Source: Natronosalvus amylolyticus | GTDB lineage: Archaea > Halobacteriota > Halobacteria > Halobacteriales > Natrialbaceae | NCBI RefSeq assembly: GCF_024298845.1 | Contig: NZ_CP101160.1 | Span: 310,001-374,000, forward strand | DNA: 64,000 nucleotides | Direction: 5' to 3' | Part shown: positions 51,702 to 59,356 of the stretch, one piece after another | Layout of the letters: each line of letters opens with the position of its first letter | Position numbering within the stretch: position 1 is the stretch's first letter | Position numbers and translations under genes: made by a program | The notes under the pieces: generated by a model | Told to the model about the DNA's origin: nothing | The model's input: the letters and a program-made list of their open reading frames with translations, nothing else | Database searches by the model: none

Positions 51702-54500
51702 TCACTCGAGCAACGAACGCATCGAATTGACGCCGAGTGCTCCCGCACCGATAGCCGTCGCACCGATGATAAAAAGTGGGTTCAACACGCCCAACAGCGC
51801 GACTGGAATCGCGATACCATTGTAGACGAACGCCAGGCGATTGTTCTGTTGGACACGACGACGAGCGCCTTCGGCGAGGTCGAACGCTGTTTCGATCGCT
51901 GTCAGGTCGTCCTCGGCAACCGTAATGTCAGACGCATCGGATGCCAGATCCGTACCACCACCGAGTGAGATACCCAGTGCAGCCTCCGCCAGCGCGGGCG
52001 CGTCGTTCGTGCCATCGCCGACCATCGCGACGGTGGAATCTGTGCCGAGTTTGCTAATCGCTGCAACTTTGCCTTCGGGAGGCACCCCAGCAAACACCCT
52101 CGAAACGTCCGGGTGGCTGGCAAACGGTTCAGTCGCCGACCGCTCGTCACCGGTGAGGACGATAACCTCCATGCCTCGAGTGCTGAGACGCTCGATGGTG
52201 TCTTCCCAGTTTGTTCGCGGCTGATCACCAACGACCACGAGTCCGCACGCACGTCCGTTCTGTCCGACGACGATAGGCAGCCGTCCGGCCCCTCGTTCGG
52301 ACTGAACCTGTCGTTCGAGGCCATCCTCGAGCTCCCATCCCTGATCGAGGAACAGGTCGGGATGGCCCACGAGCGTTTCATCACCATCGACGATACCGCC
52401 AACACCGTTTGAATAGCTCCGAAAGTCAGATACCTCTTCGATCGCTACCGATTCCGACCGCGGTTCTCCGCCATCTGGTTGAGGTGCGTTCCCGTCCGAG
52501 TCTGTTGTGTTCACGTCTGGCGTTGCATTCGCGTCTGTCGTACTCGGCCCGTATGCTCGAGCAATGGCGTCGGCGGCCGGGTGGGCAGCTCGTTGCTCGA
52601 GGCGGCCTGCTGCTTCGAGAACCGGTTGCGGTGCGTCTGCAGAAAGGACGGTCATCTGTCCACGAGTGAGCGTTCCAGTCTTGTCGAAAACGACAGTATC
52701 GACCTCCCGTAGCCGGTCGAATACCGTTTCGTCGAAAATGACGATGCCCCGCTCGAGAGCTTCCTCCAGGGTCGTCGCAATCGAGAGCGGCGTCGCAAAG
52801 CCAAGCAACCAGGGCGAGGCGATCATGAAGACGGCGAGAAAGCCAAGAATTGCGGTACCAACACTCCCGCTCAACACCAACGTCCCGACACCGCCGAGTA
52901 CGGCAAAACCGACGATTGGAGTTAGCAGTCGACCAGCGAGACGGTCGGCACGTCGCTGGACGCCGTGTGTGGCACTCTGGAGTTGCCACACCGTCGTCGT
53001 CAGTCTGTCGATACTGCTCTTTGCGGTTGGACCGACGCGAACGATTGCGGCATCGGTGGTAACGATTGAACCGCCGACCACGTCGTCGCCAGGTTCTTTG
53101 ATAATTGGAACTGACTCGCCAGTAATGATCGCCTCGTCGACCGTACAGGTACCCTCGGCCAGTTCGCCGTCGACGGGAATCCGTTCTCCCTGTTTGACGA
53201 GAAGTCGGTCGTCCGGCTCGAGTTCGCCGACATCGACTGTGTCGGTCGAACCGTCGTCTGCTAATCGGCGAGCACTGTCAACCTGGGAAACGGTGAGTTC
53301 GGTAAGTCTATCCAGAGCTTTCTGTTTGACCGACGATTCGTACAGGATACCGCCGGTCACGATCGCTGCGATAGCCAACACGAAATCGTAGTAGATATGC
53401 CCGCTGTTGCCGACGACGACGGCGAGTGAACTGTAGAGATACGCGCTGACGATAGCCAGCGCAGCGAGTAAGTCGGTGTTCGGCTGGCGAAGCTTGAGAC
53501 TAATGTAGGCACCCCGCAACACGGGCATACCAGCGAAATAGAGGACGATACCGGTGAGCACGAAATAGACGCGGGAAAACAACACGCCACCGTCAGTGAA
53601 CAGGACGGTAAAGCCCTCGAGCGGGCCAGCAGGATACAGTTCCGCCAGGTGGGCTGGATAGAGAACTGTAATATACGGTATTAACAGAAAGGAGCCGAAA
53701 ACGACGCTGAGGATGTACCGCATGTCCATCGCGTCGTCCGAACGTCGTTTCCGAATCCCCGACATCTCTCGAGCGCGCCGAGTCGTACTTGTGGACTCGT
53801 TCGGGTTCGGACTGTTTTCGGGTCCGACGACTCGTCGAACGGTGTTCTCGTCCGTTTCCGACGATTCCGTCACGGTGTCGCGGAGATAGGCGGTGTATCC
53901 AAGTCGACTCAGAGCATCCTCGAGGTCGGATTTCGGAAGCTGTGCCGGGTCGTGGTCGACACGAATCGACTCCGTGACGTAACTCGCTTCGGCATCGAAG
54001 ATACCGTCATGCTCGCACGCAACGGACTCGAGGTACTGCTCACAGGTGACGGCGTGCATCCCGTCGACACGAAGGAAGGTCTGGATCGGCGCTGGGTGGC
54101 TTTCGGTATCCGTAGTTGGATCCGCCTCCTCTGCGTCGGTACCCGTCGCTTCGACGCCTGCTTCGAATTCGATGGACGAGGCCTCCTCTTGCGTATCAAC
54201 CTGTCCAGTTGCTCCCGTAACCGAGGACTCCCCGTCCGACGCTGGATCGGTATCCACCGATTCCGATTCGTCTGTGCCACCCACTGGTGCTCCCTTGGGC
54301 GCGACAGTCGGTTCCATTTCTGGCTCCGGAATCGAGGGAGGAGGGCCTTCGGCCAACGGTCCAAGCGAGTTATACAGGGTCTGACAGCCACTCGAGCAGA
54401 CTTGCTCACCGCTCCCGACGTGCAATTCGCCCGCAGAATCTGGACAGGGACGCCCACAAAATGCACAGCGGTCGACTTCGCCTCCCGGGGCGTTACCCAT
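51702..54500 (-). CDS. P1B-type heavy-metal ATPase, CcoI/FixI-like, with altered metal motifs
   Basis: 932-residue membrane pump. Order: N-terminal four-Cys metal-binding domain (CAFCGRPCP and VCSSGCQTLY, PF12156-like), an acidic linker, one HMA-like domain (about 145-215), then eight predicted membrane helices with the phosphorylation site DKTGTLTRG and hinge GDGTNDAPAL. Two metal-binding motifs are changed. The HMA motif GMxCxxC reads GMHAVTC, losing its first Cys. The transmembrane CPC motif reads SPW in ASPWLLGFATPL. ATPase catalytic residues are intact. The architecture matches copper pumps serving cytochrome oxidase (CcoI), but selectivity is probably altered. Isolated single gene. Confidence 0.92.
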   Translation of the reverse strand: MGNAPGGEVDRCAFCGRPCPDSAGELHVGSGEQVCSSGCQTLYNSLGPLAEGPPPSIPEPEMEPTVAPKGAPVGGTDESESVDTDPASDGESSVTGATGQVDTQEEASSIEFEAGVEATGTDAEEADPTTDTESHPAPIQTFLRVDGMHAVTCEQYLESVACEHDGIFDAEASYVTESIRVDHDPAQLPKSDLEDALSRLGYTAYLRDTVTESSETDENTVRRVVGPENSPNPNESTSTTRRAREMSGIRKRRSDDAMDMRYILSVVFGSFLLIPYITVLYPAHLAELYPAGPLEGFTVLFTDGGVLFSRVYFVLTGIVLYFAGMPVLRGAYISLKLRQPNTDLLAALAIVSAYLYSSLAVVVGNSGHIYYDFVLAIAAIVTGGILYESSVKQKALDRLTELTVSQVDSARRLADDGSTDTVDVGELEPDDRLLVKQGERIPVDGELAEGTCTVDEAIITGESVPIIKEPGDDVVGGSIVTTDAAIVRVGPTAKSSIDRLTTTVWQLQSATHGVQRRADRLAGRLLTPIVGFAVLGGVGTLVLSGSVGTAILGFLAVFMIASPWLLGFATPLSIATTLEEALERGIVIFDETVFDRLREVDTVVFDKTGTLTRGQMTVLSADAPQPVLEAAGRLEQRAAHPAADAIARAYGPSTTDANATPDVNTTDSDGNAPQPDGGEPRSESVAIEEVSDFRSYSNGVGGIVDGDETLVGHPDLFLDQGWELEDGLERQVQSERGAGRLPIVVGQNGRACGLVVVGDQPRTNWEDTIERLSTRGMEVIVLTGDERSATEPFASHPDVSRVFAGVPPEGKVAAISKLGTDSTVAMVGDGTNDAPALAEAALGISLGGGTDLASDASDITVAEDDLTAIETAFDLAEGARRRVQQNNRLAFVYNGIAIPVALLGVLNPLFIIGATAIGAGALGVNSMRSLLE

Positions 54501-54860
54501 CGGTTCTCACCTGCCTCGAGCGCCCGGTTTGGCGGTCGTCGATCGCGTTCGTGTTCATTGGGCTGGTGTATGATCTCTGGACCCTAAACGGATTCGAATG
54601 TGTGTGGTCTTTCATCGGGATCACTGCGGTCACGTGCCACCGACCGGTCGTGCTTGGTTACGAACGATAATGAGAGGATGCCCTTCAATGGATGTCTATA
54701 ACATAAATAACTCTGATCAAGGGTATATCGACTGGACAGGCCTGGGTTTAGTGCGCCGAGAGCGGACACCATCCGAAGAGGTGGAACGTGGGTTCAATCA
54801 ACCAGGTATCTAATAAGCGCAGTTTGAGAAGCGAGCAGGTCGTAGAGGTAGTTTGGAACA
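54501..54860. other. Intergenic stretch before the transposase remnant
   Basis: 360 bases, AT-rich at 54690-54720. No gene seen. It may contain one end of the decayed insertion element that follows, but no clear terminal repeat was found. Confidence 0.45.
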
Positions 54861-55483
54861 ATGCTTGCAGACCTGTTCAGCGATTTATATGCGGCGGAAT
54901 TTGTATGTGGGGAGCGTGGGCGGACGGCGACGCCCGTCAGGGTGTGTACCCCCACGCGACCAGTTATTCGTTTCGAGAAATACAAGCAGTTCTACGCTTA
55001 ATCGGCGTTGAACGCCCTTATCAATCGCATTGTCATAAATCGTATATATTGGCTCACAGTCCGACAGATCCGCCGACAACGAAGCAGCCAGGGGCCTCAT
55101 TTGATAAGATTATTGTTAAGATAATTTCAATCTAATCTTGGAGTGGATATGCAATTTCAATGGGCTGTAAGCTCATTATCGATATCGAATTTTTCGGGCG
55201 ACGAGGCACCGATCCAGCCGCTGCATTCCTGCAGCGATTGACCGAGAAACAACATCTTGAGTGCGAGATGTTCCTCATCGATGGCTGCGGATATCTGACC
55301 GCCACTTCTCGGTCTGAGTTGTGCGGATCCCTCCACAATATCAAACGATACTTGATCGGAAAGGGATTTTCTACGCTCAAAATGTGGGCCCACAGCTTCG
55401 ATAAACCGTGCGTGAGCAGTCGGGCAAGTATCGGAAATTGTCTTGTGCTTTTTAAACACTTCTCCAAAACATTTCGACTGTAG
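54861..55483 (+). pseudogene. Decayed IS6-family-type transposase
   Basis: Fragments of one transposase lie in successive frames. The ATG at 54861 opens with MLADLFSDLYAAEF and GERGRTATPVRV. A second frame gives YSFREIQAVLRLIGVERPYQS and DPPTTKQP. The third, from about 55160, gives FFGRRGTDPAAAFLQRLTEKQ, FLIDGCGYLTATSR and SSRAS. These match the order of haloarchaeal IS6-type DDE transposases. Frameshifts, an internal stop and loss of the segment holding the first catalytic Asp show it is inactive. The surrounding DNA is AT-rich. Confidence 0.75.
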
Positions 55484-55814
55484 CACTAACTTTACAGACA
55501 TATACCAGCTGAGGTGGTGAACTAGAAAGTGCTGAACACATGCTTTAATCAAATTTCTGACTATTATACCCAAACAGAGCACATCAACTAGTATATAAAT
55601 TGTGTTAGATGTGAGATTGATATTGTTTTTGAGGTTGGTTTCATGTGGATTTACTGCTAGTAATAGCACTCATACACTCATTCCGTAACAACAGAGAAAT
55701 GAGCAACCGCTCCGGTGTCGCCACGACTCGAGTCTTGAACGTTGATATTACAATGGGTGTACTCTGTCACATTCGAAGAATGAGAATCTATGCTAATACC
55801 CGTCAGTAAAGAGT
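55484..55814. other. AT-rich intergenic stretch
   Basis: 331 bases between the transposase remnant and the STAND gene stop. Composition is markedly AT-rich. No gene or clear repeat was seen; it may include the distal end of the dead insertion element. Confidence 0.45.
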
Positions 55815-58800
55815 TTAATTAATAGTATTTATTTCCCGATCAACCCACTCAGAATGGAGGTCGGAGGTTACAGCAGGTGCTTCGCCGAGCAATTCCTGTG
55901 CTCGCTCGAGCCATCTGGAGACTTCGTCCGTGTCGCCTTCCTCGAGGCTGGCCCCGACGAGATACTCGAGCGTCTCCAAGGCCAGGTCGTAGGAATCGCG
56001 GTCCTCGAATTCTTCGAGGGCAATCTGCCAGTGGGCTGTGGCCTCCTCGAGATTACCGTTTGCAGCGGCGATGCGTCCAAGTTGGTTCAAACACCTGGCG
56101 CGTACGTGGTCTTCCTCGAGTTTCCGGACGACAGCGAGCACTTCTTCGGTCTGTTTGCGTGCCTCCGAGAGGTTCTCACAGGCAAGGGCTAGAGTCGCTC
56201 GTTCCAATTTGGTTCGGGCCATGTACGACTGGTTTCCCGTCTCGTCGAAAGTCTCGAGGGCCTCCTCGAAGAACGCATCGGCTGCCTGATAGTCTTCTTG
56301 CTCTCTCGCGACGATTCCGAGCCCCCAGAGGCTATGTCCTCGCTCCCTCGAGTGATCGATCGTCGTCGAGATTTCGAGAGCCGCACCGTGGAAGTCTTCG
56401 GCTTCCTGTGTCGCGCCCCGTTTGGAGGCCGTGAGTCCGAGGTTGTTGAGACAACTCGCCTCGCCGGATCGATAGCCAATTTCGCGCCTGATGGTGAGGC
56501 TCTCCTCGAAGTAGCTCTGGGCCCGGTCGTATGCGCCCTGGTGATACGCGACGGACCCAATGTTATTGAGACTGGTCGCTTCTCCCGCTCGGTCGCCGGT
56601 GTCACGCGCAAACTGGAGAAACACCTCGAAGTGGTCTCGTGCGCGTTCGTACGCGCCCTGTGACCACGCAATCGCGCCGAGATTGGCGTCGGCAACCGAC
56701 GCGAGGTTTCGATCACCGAGTTGGCGTGCACACTCCTGGCACGCCTCGAAAGATTCGCGCGCTCGCTCATAGGAACCGAGTCGCCACTCGACCAGCCCCA
56801 GGCCCTTGAGGTGTCGTGCTTCACCTACCAGATCGTCGTGCGTTCGAGCGGTGGACAGTCCCGTTTCGTGATGTGAAATCGCTTCGTCGTAGGCTCCGCG
56901 CTTGAACGCCACTCGAGCTAGGCCCAGGAGGCCGTCTCTTGCCCCAGCGATATCGGTGTCGGGCACGCGTTCGAAGGCGCGTTCTGCGTGGTCGTAGTAG
57001 CCGCCAGTCAGGAACGCCTCGCCGAGCCAGAGCGGTCGTTCCTCGGCGATCGAACCTGTACACGCTGCTGGGAGGTCGATGCTATCGTGAGCCCCATCAC
57101 CAAAGAGAGGTGTCAGCGTCGACCGCCGTCTGCACAGGTCATAAATGGCTTTCACCGTCTCATCCGCCCACGTTGGTGACTCGTCGATTGCTGGCGTGAA
57201 CCCTACCTGGCCGTCGCCATCGAGTTGCTGTCCGATCCGTTCATAGCGCTCAGGATCTTCGGCGAGTCTCAACAGCGCACTCACCACGGTGCCGAACTGC
57301 TTTGCGGCCTCCTCTTCTCCCTCCACGTCGAGGATGTGGTGGAGGAACACCATCGACCACTCCTCGTGAACGATTCGGTAGCCTCCATCTTGGCCGGGAA
57401 AGAGAACTCGCCCAGACAATTGATCGAGCGCGTCATCGACAGGCCCATACTGGCTCCCCTCACCTCCCGTGCGCACGTCGCCGGCTACAGCGTAGCAGAG
57501 CCCACGGTTGACACGAATTCCCGCCGCATTGAGCGTGTTTACCAGGAGACAAACCGATCGAGCCAGATCGTCAGCCGAAAGGTCGGCGTAGACGCTCGCC
57601 ACCTCCTCCTCGAGTGCGGTCGGTTCCGCCGCCAGCGGATCGGCATACGTCGCGAGTCGATGAATCAGTCGGAGCATCTCGTGTGTCTTGCCATCGTCGG
57701 TAACGGCCTCGTCTCGAACCACGGACCACAGCCGATCGGTGGGGACCTCGACTGACCGTCCAACCGTTCGTTCGAAGTGGTCGACGAGTTTCACACAGTC
57801 CCTCGCCTCGATTCGTGGAACATACGTTATCTCGAGGGCCGACACATCGGTCGCCGGTGCCAGTTGATCTCGCCACTCGCTTTCACGAGAGTCGAGGAGG
57901 ACACTGACACTGTCGTGATGGGTGAGGTGCTCGAGCGCCTCGAAAATGGCGTTCGCGCTCGGACGGACGGCATCTTCTATAACGACGAGTGCGTGGCCGT
58001 CCGCGTTCGTCACAGTCGCGACGAGGTCATCGATAGAGCTGATAGATTGGTCGTGATTGCCAGCACGGTAGAGAACCGGTCCTCGGTCCTCTTCGTACCA
58101 TTGACAGGCCACTTGTTTACAGACGGTGCTCTTTCCGGAGCCCGGTGGCCCGAGGACGACCACACTGTCACCGGAACGCAACTCGTCCGTGATCTCTGCA
58201 GCCAATCCCCTTCTCTCGTCGGTTGATTCTTCGGTTGGTCCTGAACCCGGTCTCGTGATTGCATAGCCGGTGTGTACCTCGGCGAGTGAGAGTCCGGCCC
58301 GCCAGGCCGTCGTCGGCTTCGAAACGGGTTCGTTCCGAAAGTACGCGGCATCGACTCGTGTGAAGCCTTCGCGCTCGAGTGACGGAGGGAGTGACTGACC
58401 GATCATCGGTACTCCGTCTCGCTCGAGCGTTTGAGTGCCCCCGTCTGTGTCGGCGATCAACTCTCCCGTTCGATCCGTTGCGTCGTTTCGATACTGCTCG
58501 TATTGTGCCGTCGCCCACGATATTCCGTGCTCAGTTTTGTTTACGACCAGTCCATGAATCCCACCGTTGTCGTTGTGAATGACGGCGTGGACTGTCGTTG
58601 ACCCGCTCCCCGTCCCGAGTTGATGCTCAAGCAGACCGAGGGTGTACGGCGGGACCTTACCCACGAGGATGTCAAAGTGCTTCGCTTCAGCCAAGAGGGT
58701 CATTCGGCGCGGGAACTCGTTTCGCAACATCCGGAAGACCTCCTGAGAGACGACGATTTCTGCTGGATTTCCTTGGATGACGACGTGTTGGTACAGTACC

Positions 58801-59255
58801 CTGATGGTTCGGGACGCTTCGACTGTCGAGAGCAGTGCTCGATAGGCCTTGGCCTCGGTCAGGTCCTCGTGCATCCGGTCAGACGGACGATAAGGCGTGG
58901 GGTCTGCGGCCAGAAAGCACGCTGCATCCCTGATGATGTCGTGCTCGATATCTGCCTCCGCAGGCAGCGGTTCAAGGACGGCGTGTGCCGCAAAAATATC
59001 GTCGAGCCCATCGAGATACGCAGTCAATTGGTCGCGGGCGAACCGACCGATGATCGTCGCTTCGATCCCATCGTCTCCTCGGTAGAGGAGGTCGAGTTCG
59101 CTCAGTTCATTGACTGCGCGGTGAACCGTCGACCGAGCTTGTCCGGTTTCGTCGATGAGGTCCCTGATATGCGCTGGTGATTGACACAGCCGATCCAATA
59201 ACTCGAGCCGATTAACGAGCGTAACTAGTGTTTCGTTTTTATCGGCTCGAAACAT
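55815..59255 (-). CDS. HTH-FilR1-STAND NTPase-TPR protein
   Basis: 1146-residue multidomain protein. Residues about 5-75 are a winged-helix DNA-binding domain (IRDLIDETGQARSTVHRAVNELSELDLL). About 125-260 match the FilR1-type ligand domain of archaeal regulators (AEIVVSQEVFRML, LVVNKTEHGISWATAQYEQY). About 350-700 are a STAND-type NTPase: Walker A GPPGSGKST near 372, Walker B-like ALVVIEDAV. From about 755 to 1100 come many tetratricopeptide repeats (for example DAISHHETGLSTARTHDDL). TPRs would sense, the NTPase switch, and the HTH act on DNA, giving an energy-dependent transcription switch; a defence role is also possible. Single gene next to a transposase remnant; no known partner is adjacent. 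Confidence 0.85.
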   Translation of the reverse strand: MFRADKNETLVTLVNRLELLDRLCQSPAHIRDLIDETGQARSTVHRAVNELSELDLLYRGDDGIEATIIGRFARDQLTAYLDGLDDIFAAHAVLEPLPAEADIEHDIIRDAACFLAADPTPYRPSDRMHEDLTEAKAYRALLSTVEASRTIRVLYQHVVIQGNPAEIVVSQEVFRMLRNEFPRRMTLLAEAKHFDILVGKVPPYTLGLLEHQLGTGSGSTTVHAVIHNDNGGIHGLVVNKTEHGISWATAQYEQYRNDATDRTGELIADTDGGTQTLERDGVPMIGQSLPPSLEREGFTRVDAAYFRNEPVSKPTTAWRAGLSLAEVHTGYAITRPGSGPTEESTDERRGLAAEITDELRSGDSVVVLGPPGSGKSTVCKQVACQWYEEDRGPVLYRAGNHDQSISSIDDLVATVTNADGHALVVIEDAVRPSANAIFEALEHLTHHDSVSVLLDSRESEWRDQLAPATDVSALEITYVPRIEARDCVKLVDHFERTVGRSVEVPTDRLWSVVRDEAVTDDGKTHEMLRLIHRLATYADPLAAEPTALEEEVASVYADLSADDLARSVCLLVNTLNAAGIRVNRGLCYAVAGDVRTGGEGSQYGPVDDALDQLSGRVLFPGQDGGYRIVHEEWSMVFLHHILDVEGEEEAAKQFGTVVSALLRLAEDPERYERIGQQLDGDGQVGFTPAIDESPTWADETVKAIYDLCRRRSTLTPLFGDGAHDSIDLPAACTGSIAEERPLWLGEAFLTGGYYDHAERAFERVPDTDIAGARDGLLGLARVAFKRGAYDEAISHHETGLSTARTHDDLVGEARHLKGLGLVEWRLGSYERARESFEACQECARQLGDRNLASVADANLGAIAWSQGAYERARDHFEVFLQFARDTGDRAGEATSLNNIGSVAYHQGAYDRAQSYFEESLTIRREIGYRSGEASCLNNLGLTASKRGATQEAEDFHGAALEISTTIDHSRERGHSLWGLGIVAREQEDYQAADAFFEEALETFDETGNQSYMARTKLERATLALACENLSEARKQTEEVLAVVRKLEEDHVRARCLNQLGRIAAANGNLEEATAHWQIALEEFEDRDSYDLALETLEYLVGASLEEGDTDEVSRWLERAQELLGEAPAVTSDLHSEWVDREINTIN

Positions 59256-59356
59256 ATCTTCATTCGATAATTACCGGCGGTCTTTTTATATTCATCGTAC
59301 ACGATAAATTGCGATCGAGACAACGTGCAGTCATCTACGATTGTAACGGTCATCGA

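What the first reader, a model, noticed from the sequence alone, without database searches (positions are those of the whole stretch)
55815..59255. HTH-FilR1-STAND-TPR fusion: a possible archaeal ATP-driven switch or immune sensor
The protein joins a DNA-binding domain and an archaeal ligand domain to a STAND NTPase and a long TPR array, the architecture of MalT/AfsR-type activators and of Avs/NLR-type immune sensors. In archaea the FilR1 link appears unusual. The adjacent mobile-element remnant fits an accessory or defence role.
Basis: partly seen in the sequence, partly recalled or inferred. Interest (0 to 1): 0.7.

Follow-up and report, generated by a model that had tools for sequence, protein, structure and literature searches.

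The report
Archaeal STAND switch for surface genes
A salt-loving archaeon carries a large DNA-binding, ATP-switch protein built like immune sensors, but its close relatives sit beside giant cell-surface genes that share a tailor-made promoter sequence, so it is most likely a signal-gated gene switch for the cell coat rather than an antiviral alarm.

Summary
One intact 1146-aa ORF joins HVO_A0261-type wHTH, FilR1_middle, nSTAND_NTPase5 and about 13 TPRs. P-loop, Walker B, a sensor-1-like Arg and a winged-helix His are conserved.

The architecture is not rare: 63 of 85 haloarchaeal nSTAND5 proteins collected here have it. The family splits in two. One branch has other N-termini (helical, Mrr nuclease, KAP) and sits among Shango, BREX, restriction-modification and Csx1 genes. 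The HTH-FilR1 branch does not.

In the window protein's own clade the neighbours are exported: giant PGF-CTERM surface proteins and Tat-exported PQQ propellers (adjacent genes 13/26 exported against 35/243 in controls).

New result: a promoter element, core ACAGTGTNNNGACCCRTAACATGAGG, occurs 13 times in 391 haloarchaeal genomes. All 13 lie in five genomes, within about 30 kb of such a gene. In eight of 13 the ATG is 51-52 nt after the site start, in front of non-homologous exported proteins. These five genomes are exactly those whose FilR1-STAND recognition helix reads 'TVHR', as in the window protein.

Best reading: a MalT/PH0952-like ATP-gated transcription activator of surface genes. The immune-sensor reading is not supported for this branch. 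No element was found at the window gene's own locus, so its own target is inferred.

The parts
55815..59255 (-). HTH-FilR1-nSTAND5-TPR gene, 1146 aa
59004..59240 (-). HVO_A0261_N winged HTH (residues 6-84), recognition helix ARSTVHRAVNEL
   Evidence: Pfam PF25213 47.9 bits; helix type shared only with the 6 homologues next to element 1
58482..58895 (-). FilR1_middle domain (residues 121-258)
   Evidence: Pfam PF08350 59.3 bits; pLDDT mostly 70-89
57864..58223 (-). nSTAND_NTPase5 core (residues 345-464)
   Evidence: Pfam PF25199 51.4 bits; fold match EfAvs5 STAND Z 15.3
58125..58151 (-). Walker A GPPGSGKST (369-377)
   Evidence: G369, G372, G374, K375, S376, T377 invariant in 17 homologues
57963..57992 (-). 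Walker B ALVVIEDAVR (422-431)
   Evidence: L423, E427, D428, A429, R431 invariant in 17 homologues
57873..57899 (-). sensor-1-like LLDSRESEW (453-461)
   Evidence: L453, D455, R457, W461 invariant
57336..57446 (-). predicted winged-helix region with MHD-type His630 (VHEEWS)
   Evidence: H630 at least 90% conserved, W633 invariant; helix-hairpin-helix in both models
55836..57026 (-). TPR array, about 13 repeats (744-1140)
   Evidence: Pfam; 26 helices at high pLDDT; MalT domain III 1hz4 Z 24.5, Rap/NprR about Z 24-28
59282..59291 (-). TATA-like box ATATAAAAAG of the STAND gene, 27-36 nt before its ATG
   Evidence: sequence; similar box at the same place in sister genes of L040 and L043
59432..64000 (-). 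giant surface protein gene (GLUG, CARDB, PGF-CTERM tail); runs on outside the window to position 67033, 2533 aa in all
54809..55532 (+). degenerate IS6-family transposase remnant

Best explanation
A signal-gated transcription regulator, most likely an activator, that works like MalT or PH0952. The TPR array and perhaps the FilR1 domain hold the STAND core in a closed, ADP-bound form. An inducer releases it, ATP binds, the protein multimerises, and the N-terminal winged HTH is presented to paired operator sites at promoters of exported surface proteins, switching on giant PGF-CTERM surface proteins and the linked PQQ-propeller/lipoprotein genes. Shown here: domain order, conserved nucleotide-binding motifs, clade-specific linkage to exported genes, and a promoter element that occurs only where FilR1-STANDs with the same recognition-helix type occur. 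Inferred: that this protein family binds the element, the sign of regulation, the inducer, the ADP/ATP cycle, and that the window copy acts on the element sites at C5:189169, 219894 and 222217 rather than on a different site near itself.
For: Domains and intact motifs. Exported neighbours in the close clade: 13/26 adjacent genes against 35/243 control genes, p 7e-5; surface or PQQ homologue within the fetched locus 10/11 against 5/37 control regions, p 4e-6, with queries taken from the close loci so biased upwards. The PQQ orthologues at 60% identity or more are in 5 of 125 genomes and all five lie within 2.5 kb of a FilR1-STAND. Element 1: 13 sites in 5 of 391 genomes, the reversed-pattern control gives none; ATG at +51 or +52 in 8 of 13, in front of PQQ propellers and of 2044-, 2331-, 3119- and 3386-aa surface proteins; absent before the PQQ homologues that have no STAND. 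'TVHR' helices occur in 7 of 62 FilR1-STANDs, all in those five genomes. A second element is shared by the surface genes next to two sister STANDs with 'TINR' helices and found nowhere else in 125 genomes. [quoted passage not shown] FilR1 itself activates promoters (PMC3991700).
Against: No element-1 site at the window locus itself (PWM scan). The neighbouring surface gene is flanked on its other side by a stand-alone HTH-FilR1 regulator, and the homologous surface gene in G031 has the same partner but no STAND nearby, so that regulator may control it. Other FilR1-STAND clades lie next to ordinary genes with no excess of exported neighbours (13/75, p 0.33). Element 1 rests on five related genomes in three genera, some sites orthologous. 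No binding, ATPase or expression data.
Confidence: 0.6

Rival explanations
1. An Avs/NLR-type antiviral sensor: TPRs recognise a viral protein, the STAND oligomerises and the N-terminus acts as effector, or switches on a defence programme.
For: STAND plus repeat layout; best fold match is EfAvs5; the sister branch of the same nSTAND5 family includes an Mrr-nuclease N-terminus (L122) and sits among defence genes; patchy distribution, 3 of 8 genomes of the genus; TPR is the least conserved part in the close clade, 44% against 53-61% elsewhere.
Against: No nuclease, TIR, SIR2 or membrane effector; no PADLOC Avs match; neighbours of the FilR1 branch are exported or ordinary genes, with few defence genes; promoter element linkage; no hit on viral contigs.
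Confidence: 0.12
2. The promoter elements and surface genes are controlled by another factor (for example a stand-alone FilR1 regulator or a general surface-gene regulator), and the STAND gene only travels in the same surface-gene islands, acting elsewhere.
For: A stand-alone HVO_A0261-FilR1 regulator sits divergently beside the window's surface gene and its G031 homologue, with a shared palindrome TTGMGT-N3-ACGCAA between the pair; no element 1 at the window locus.
Against: Element 1 tracks FilR1-STANDs with one helix type in 5 of 5 genomes and is missing from 386 others; no stand-alone FilR1 gene was found beside the element-1 loci.
Confidence: 0.22
3. The conserved 'element' is a site-specific recombination or mobile-element boundary (surface-gene shuffling), not an operator.
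For: Repeated copies within one genome beside variable surface genes; IS remnant and an IS-like hairpin near the STAND gene.
Against: Fixed 51-52 nt spacing to the ATG of non-homologous genes fits a promoter; no recombinase gene was noticed at the loci.
Confidence: 0.05
4. A regulator of a local non-surface target (for example the copper P-type ATPase downstream) in the MalT manner.
For: A P-type ATPase gene lies on the same strand 1.3 kb downstream; in one other genus FilR1-STANDs also have a P-type ATPase about 1.3 kb away.
Against: Between them lies an IS6 remnant; in the other genus the ATPase lies upstream instead; no such link in the close clade.
Confidence: 0.05

Closest known systems
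PH0952 of Pyrococcus horikoshii (STAND with TPR sensor, PMC6468293)
   Same: Archaeal; N-terminal DNA-binding domain, STAND NOD with winged-helix His on ADP, TPR sensor; predicted transcription factor
   Different: [quoted passage not shown] the window protein is nSTAND_NTPase5, with AAA_16 below cut-off. A haloarchaeal HTH-AAA_16-TPR protein that looks more like PH0952 is present separately in the same genome (L010)
MalT of Escherichia coli
   Same: STAND-TPR transcription activator logic; TPR array matches MalT domain III (Z 24.5) and TPR_MalT
   Different: MalT carries a C-terminal LuxR-type HTH; here the wHTH and a FilR1 domain are N-terminal
AfsR/SARP regulators
   Same: DNA-binding domain, STAND and TPR in one chain; TPR similarity
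   Different: No SARP/BTAD region; far below the AfsR model cut-off (80 against 1430 bits)
Avs/AVAST (EfAvs5)
   Same: STAND fold (Z 15.3) plus C-terminal repeats
   Different: No effector enzyme; no defence-island setting for this branch
FilR1 of Methanosaeta harundinacea and stand-alone HVO_A0261-type regulators
   Same: wHTH plus FilR1_middle
   Different: FilR1 ends in a REC domain; here STAND-TPR takes that place

Membership tests
STAND NTPase | Walker A P-loop | tested here: met
   GPPGSGKST, invariant core residues in 17 homologues; 82 of 85 members
STAND NTPase | Walker B acidic strand | tested here: met
   LVVIED, L423/E427/D428 invariant; 79 of 85 by regex
STAND NTPase | sensor-1 Arg after the next strand | tested here: met
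   LLDSRESEW, R457 invariant
STAND NTPase | winged-helix domain with nucleotide-binding His | tested here: met
   H630 at least 90% conserved after a predicted beta-hairpin; by sequence and low-confidence model only
STAND NTPase | GxP motif in the helical domain | tested here: inconclusive
   P480 and P540 near-invariant but not placed securely
STAND NTPase | STAND fold | tested here: inconclusive
   Core matches EfAvs5 STAND at Z 15.3, above AAA+ proteins at 13.4 and less, but the model is low confidence outside the core
STAND NTPase | ADP/ATP-switched multimerisation | not testable with these tools
   needs biochemistry
nSTAND_NTPase5 (PF25199) | score over curated cut-off | tested here: met
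   51.4 against 34 bits; all 24 aligned members match at E 0.01 or better
MalT family | C-terminal LuxR-type HTH | tested here: not met
   HTH is N-terminal, HVO_A0261 type; TPRs run to the C-terminus
MalT family | MalT-like TPR domain | tested here: met
   TPR_MalT 51 bits over 45; 1hz4 Z 24.5
PH0952 type | N-terminal DNA-binding domain, STAND, TPR | tested here: met
PH0952 type | same STAND clade | tested here: inconclusive
   Best NTPase family is nSTAND_NTPase5, AAA_16 under cut-off; PH0952 was not among the best 60 PDB hits; no direct tree
Avs antiviral sensors | N-terminal effector enzyme | tested here: not met
   wHTH-FilR1 instead
Avs antiviral sensors | defence-gene neighbourhood | tested here: not met
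   against for the sister branch
Avs antiviral sensors | match to known Avs models | tested here: not met
   PADLOC: no Avs model matched at E 1 or better
FilR1 response regulators | wHTH plus FilR1_middle | tested here: met
FilR1 response regulators | REC domain | tested here: not met
   no REC match listed

The most novel reading that the evidence does not exclude
An envelope-remodelling immune switch: a STAND sensor of the same family as nuclease-bearing antiviral sensors that answers infection or contact not with cell death but by turning on alternative giant surface proteins through a private promoter code, with each paralogue matched by its recognition helix to its own operator set.
Probability: 0.1. 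Interest if true: 0.85.

Novelty: new variant of a known kind. Interest (0 to 1): 0.6.

Why it matters
It would show one archaeal STAND-TPR chassis used in two ways: with nuclease or helical N-termini in defence islands, and with a wHTH-FilR1 N-terminus as a gene switch. It also offers a concrete, testable operator code (helix type to promoter element) for control of giant haloarchaeal surface proteins, whose regulation is little known. ATP-gated STAND transcription factors in archaea have a structure (PH0952), but the paper read here calls it only a putative regulator and names no target promoter.

Tried and rejected
Viral contigs: no relative. Rfam and tRNA: nothing in the window. PDB profile search of the STAND region gave P-loop matches only, no STAND among the best 60. 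The full-length fold search was filled by TPR proteins, so the NTPase part was folded alone. Careful ML tree not finished; the quick tree is used, with some forks open. Shared neighbour clusters such as P-type ATPase, RaSEA-like radical SAM and HerA genes looked like lineage synteny and were not pursued. A PWM scan of the window locus and of the L041, L042, L048, L069 loci for element 1 gave nothing over threshold. Full-text searches found no paper on FilR1-STAND or haloarchaeal nSTAND; the library is incomplete. Rejected: pseudogene (intact frame, conserved motifs) and chance ORF.

Full report
What is there. The minus-strand ORF 55815-59255 encodes 1146 aa without a stop. From the N-terminus: HVO_A0261_N wHTH, FilR1_middle, a linker ending in a conserved 'WRxGLSLxEVxxGYAxxR' block, the nSTAND_NTPase5 core, a helical and winged-helix region, and about 13 TPRs. 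In 17 homologues the P-loop, Walker B (E427, D428) and sensor-1-like R457 are invariant and H630 is at least 90% conserved. The corresponding His in PH0952 binds the ADP phosphates (PMC6468293; that the two correspond is inferred from the position after the winged-helix hairpin).

Structure. The full model is good for wHTH-FilR1 and TPR, poor between. Residues 285-745 alone give an ordered alpha/beta core. Its best structural match is the STAND of EfAvs5, Z 15.3; AAA+ proteins follow at Z 13.4 and below. The TPR array resembles MalT domain III, Rap and NprR, that is, peptide- or protein-sensing regulators.

Family. The gene lies on a 417-kb contig that also bears a 53% identical paralogue. In its taxonomic family (125 genomes) full-length relatives occur in a minority of genomes, with up to four copies in one. 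nSTAND_NTPase5 over cut-off is found in 76 of 391 Halobacteria genomes. Of 85 members in fetched loci, 63 have HTH and/or FilR1 and 22 do not. The two groups are nearly separate on the tree (3 label changes against 19.7 in shuffles). The others carry a roughly 180-aa helical N-terminus, an Mrr_cat nuclease (L122), a KAP-like part (L063), or, nested in the FilR1 branch, a protein kinase (L164).

Defence test. PADLOC scans of neighbour sets: the non-FilR1 branch gives Shango SngB/SngC, BREX BrxHI, type IIG, IetA, Csx1, SoFic (97 proteins) and BrxC/D by Pfam. The close FilR1 clade gives one Cas6, one CARF and generic helicases (76 proteins). Other FilR1 clades give HerA, one IetA and a homing endonuclease (104 proteins). 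Sets were chosen by simple gene calling and not matched for size, so this is a contrast, not a rate.

Surface linkage. In the close clade the adjacent genes are exported more often than controls (13/26 against 35/243, Fisher p 7e-5; other FilR1 clades 13/75, not significant; non-FilR1 2/26). They include giant secreted proteins with beta-helix, NosD, CARDB, GLUG or PKD domains and PGF-CTERM tails, a Tat-exported PQQ propeller and lipoproteins. The PQQ orthologue at 60% identity or more exists in 5 of 125 genomes and each time lies within 2.5 kb of a FilR1-STAND. The neighbour in the window is a 2533-aa surface protein that runs past the window end.

Promoter element. Comparing upstream regions gave GTCCCAC-N3-GTGAMACAGTGT-N3-GACCCRTAACATGAGGTG. 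The 26-bp core with up to 3 mismatches occurs 13 times in 391 genomes: G000, G113, G031 and G033 three each, G085 once; the reversed pattern never. Distances to the nearest FilR1-STAND run from about 20 bp to about 29 kb. In 8 of 13 the ATG starts 51-52 nt after the site start: PQQ genes (four) and the 3119-aa, 3386-aa, 2044-aa and 2331-aa surface genes. Two 3-mismatch sites, one PQQ site in G033 and the two sites before a 685-aa lipoprotein do not follow this spacing. PQQ homologues without a STAND have no element. Since PQQ and surface genes are not homologous, shared descent of a gene does not explain the shared promoter; G000/G113 and G031/G033 are related pairs, so the independent evidence is smaller than 13 sites.

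Specificity. The residue after the recognition-helix 'T-hydrophobic' is His in 7 of 62 FilR1-STANDs. Those seven (the window protein, its paralogue, two in G031, one each in G033, G113, G085) are exactly in the five element-1 genomes. Two sister STANDs with 'TINR' (L041, L045) have another element, GTCTCANNCCGTGAGATGATGNCCNTTGCG, before their surface genes and nowhere else in 125 genomes; there the surface genes may themselves be homologous, so this is weaker.

What is open. The window gene's own locus has no element 1. Its neighbouring surface gene is flanked by a stand-alone HVO_A0261-FilR1 regulator (L193:3148-3978), as is the homologue in G031 (L218), with a palindrome between. So either the window protein acts on the three element-1 promoters of its replicon, as its helix suggests, or on a site not recognised here.

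Verdict. An ATP-gated STAND-TPR transcription regulator of the MalT/PH0952 working type with a FilR1 effector module, most likely an activator of exported surface genes (0.6). Immune sensing is possible but lacks support in this branch (0.12).

Noticed in passing
L122:1306-4455 (-): Mrr_cat nuclease - nSTAND_NTPase5 - TPR protein: an Avs-like layout in a haloarchaeon.
   Followed up: partly
L164:7025-11008 (+): Protein kinase domain in place of HTH-FilR1 on an nSTAND5-TPR protein nested in the FilR1 branch; part of the sequence is masked.
   Followed up: partly
L109, L118, L106, L123, L134, L128, L135, L132, L143, L061, L152: nSTAND5-TPR proteins with a shared helical N-terminus of about 180 aa, in loci rich in defence genes; the N-terminus was not searched on its own.
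   Followed up: partly
L193:3148-3978 (+) and L218:5039-5812 (-): Stand-alone HVO_A0261-FilR1 regulators divergent from homologous 2533- and 2559-aa surface genes, with a palindrome TTGMGT-TTC-ACGCAA between.
   Followed up: partly
G031:C1:1714094 and G113:C19:27391: Second surface-gene promoter element with TCTCA-N5-TGAGA dyads, next to FilR1-STANDs with TINR helices.
   Followed up: partly
L010:6866-10741 (-), own genome C1: HTH-AAA_16-TPR protein, more like PH0952 than like the window protein; several relatives in L062, L065, L066, L067.
   Followed up: no
about 121 nt upstream of the window STAND start, and 125 nt upstream of L047: Hairpin CCCATGACTTCAGTCGTGGG / CCCACGACTAACGTCGTGGG, possibly an IS or MITE end.
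   Followed up: no
L008:15088-17145 (+): 685-aa lipoprotein with many IPGSTW/IPGSSW repeats and a DUF6517 region, behind an element-1 site.
   Followed up: no
L049:2662-4839 (+): 725-aa protein that looks like Mrr nuclease, membrane part and propeller beside a truncated FilR1-STAND.
   Followed up: no
window 51702-54500 (-): Heavy-metal P-type ATPase gene (HMA, E1-E2 ATPase).
   Followed up: no
L185:423-2084, L186:9142-10716, L187:976-2493: PQQ-propeller plus small lipoprotein gene pairs without a STAND gene and without element 1.
   Followed up: partly
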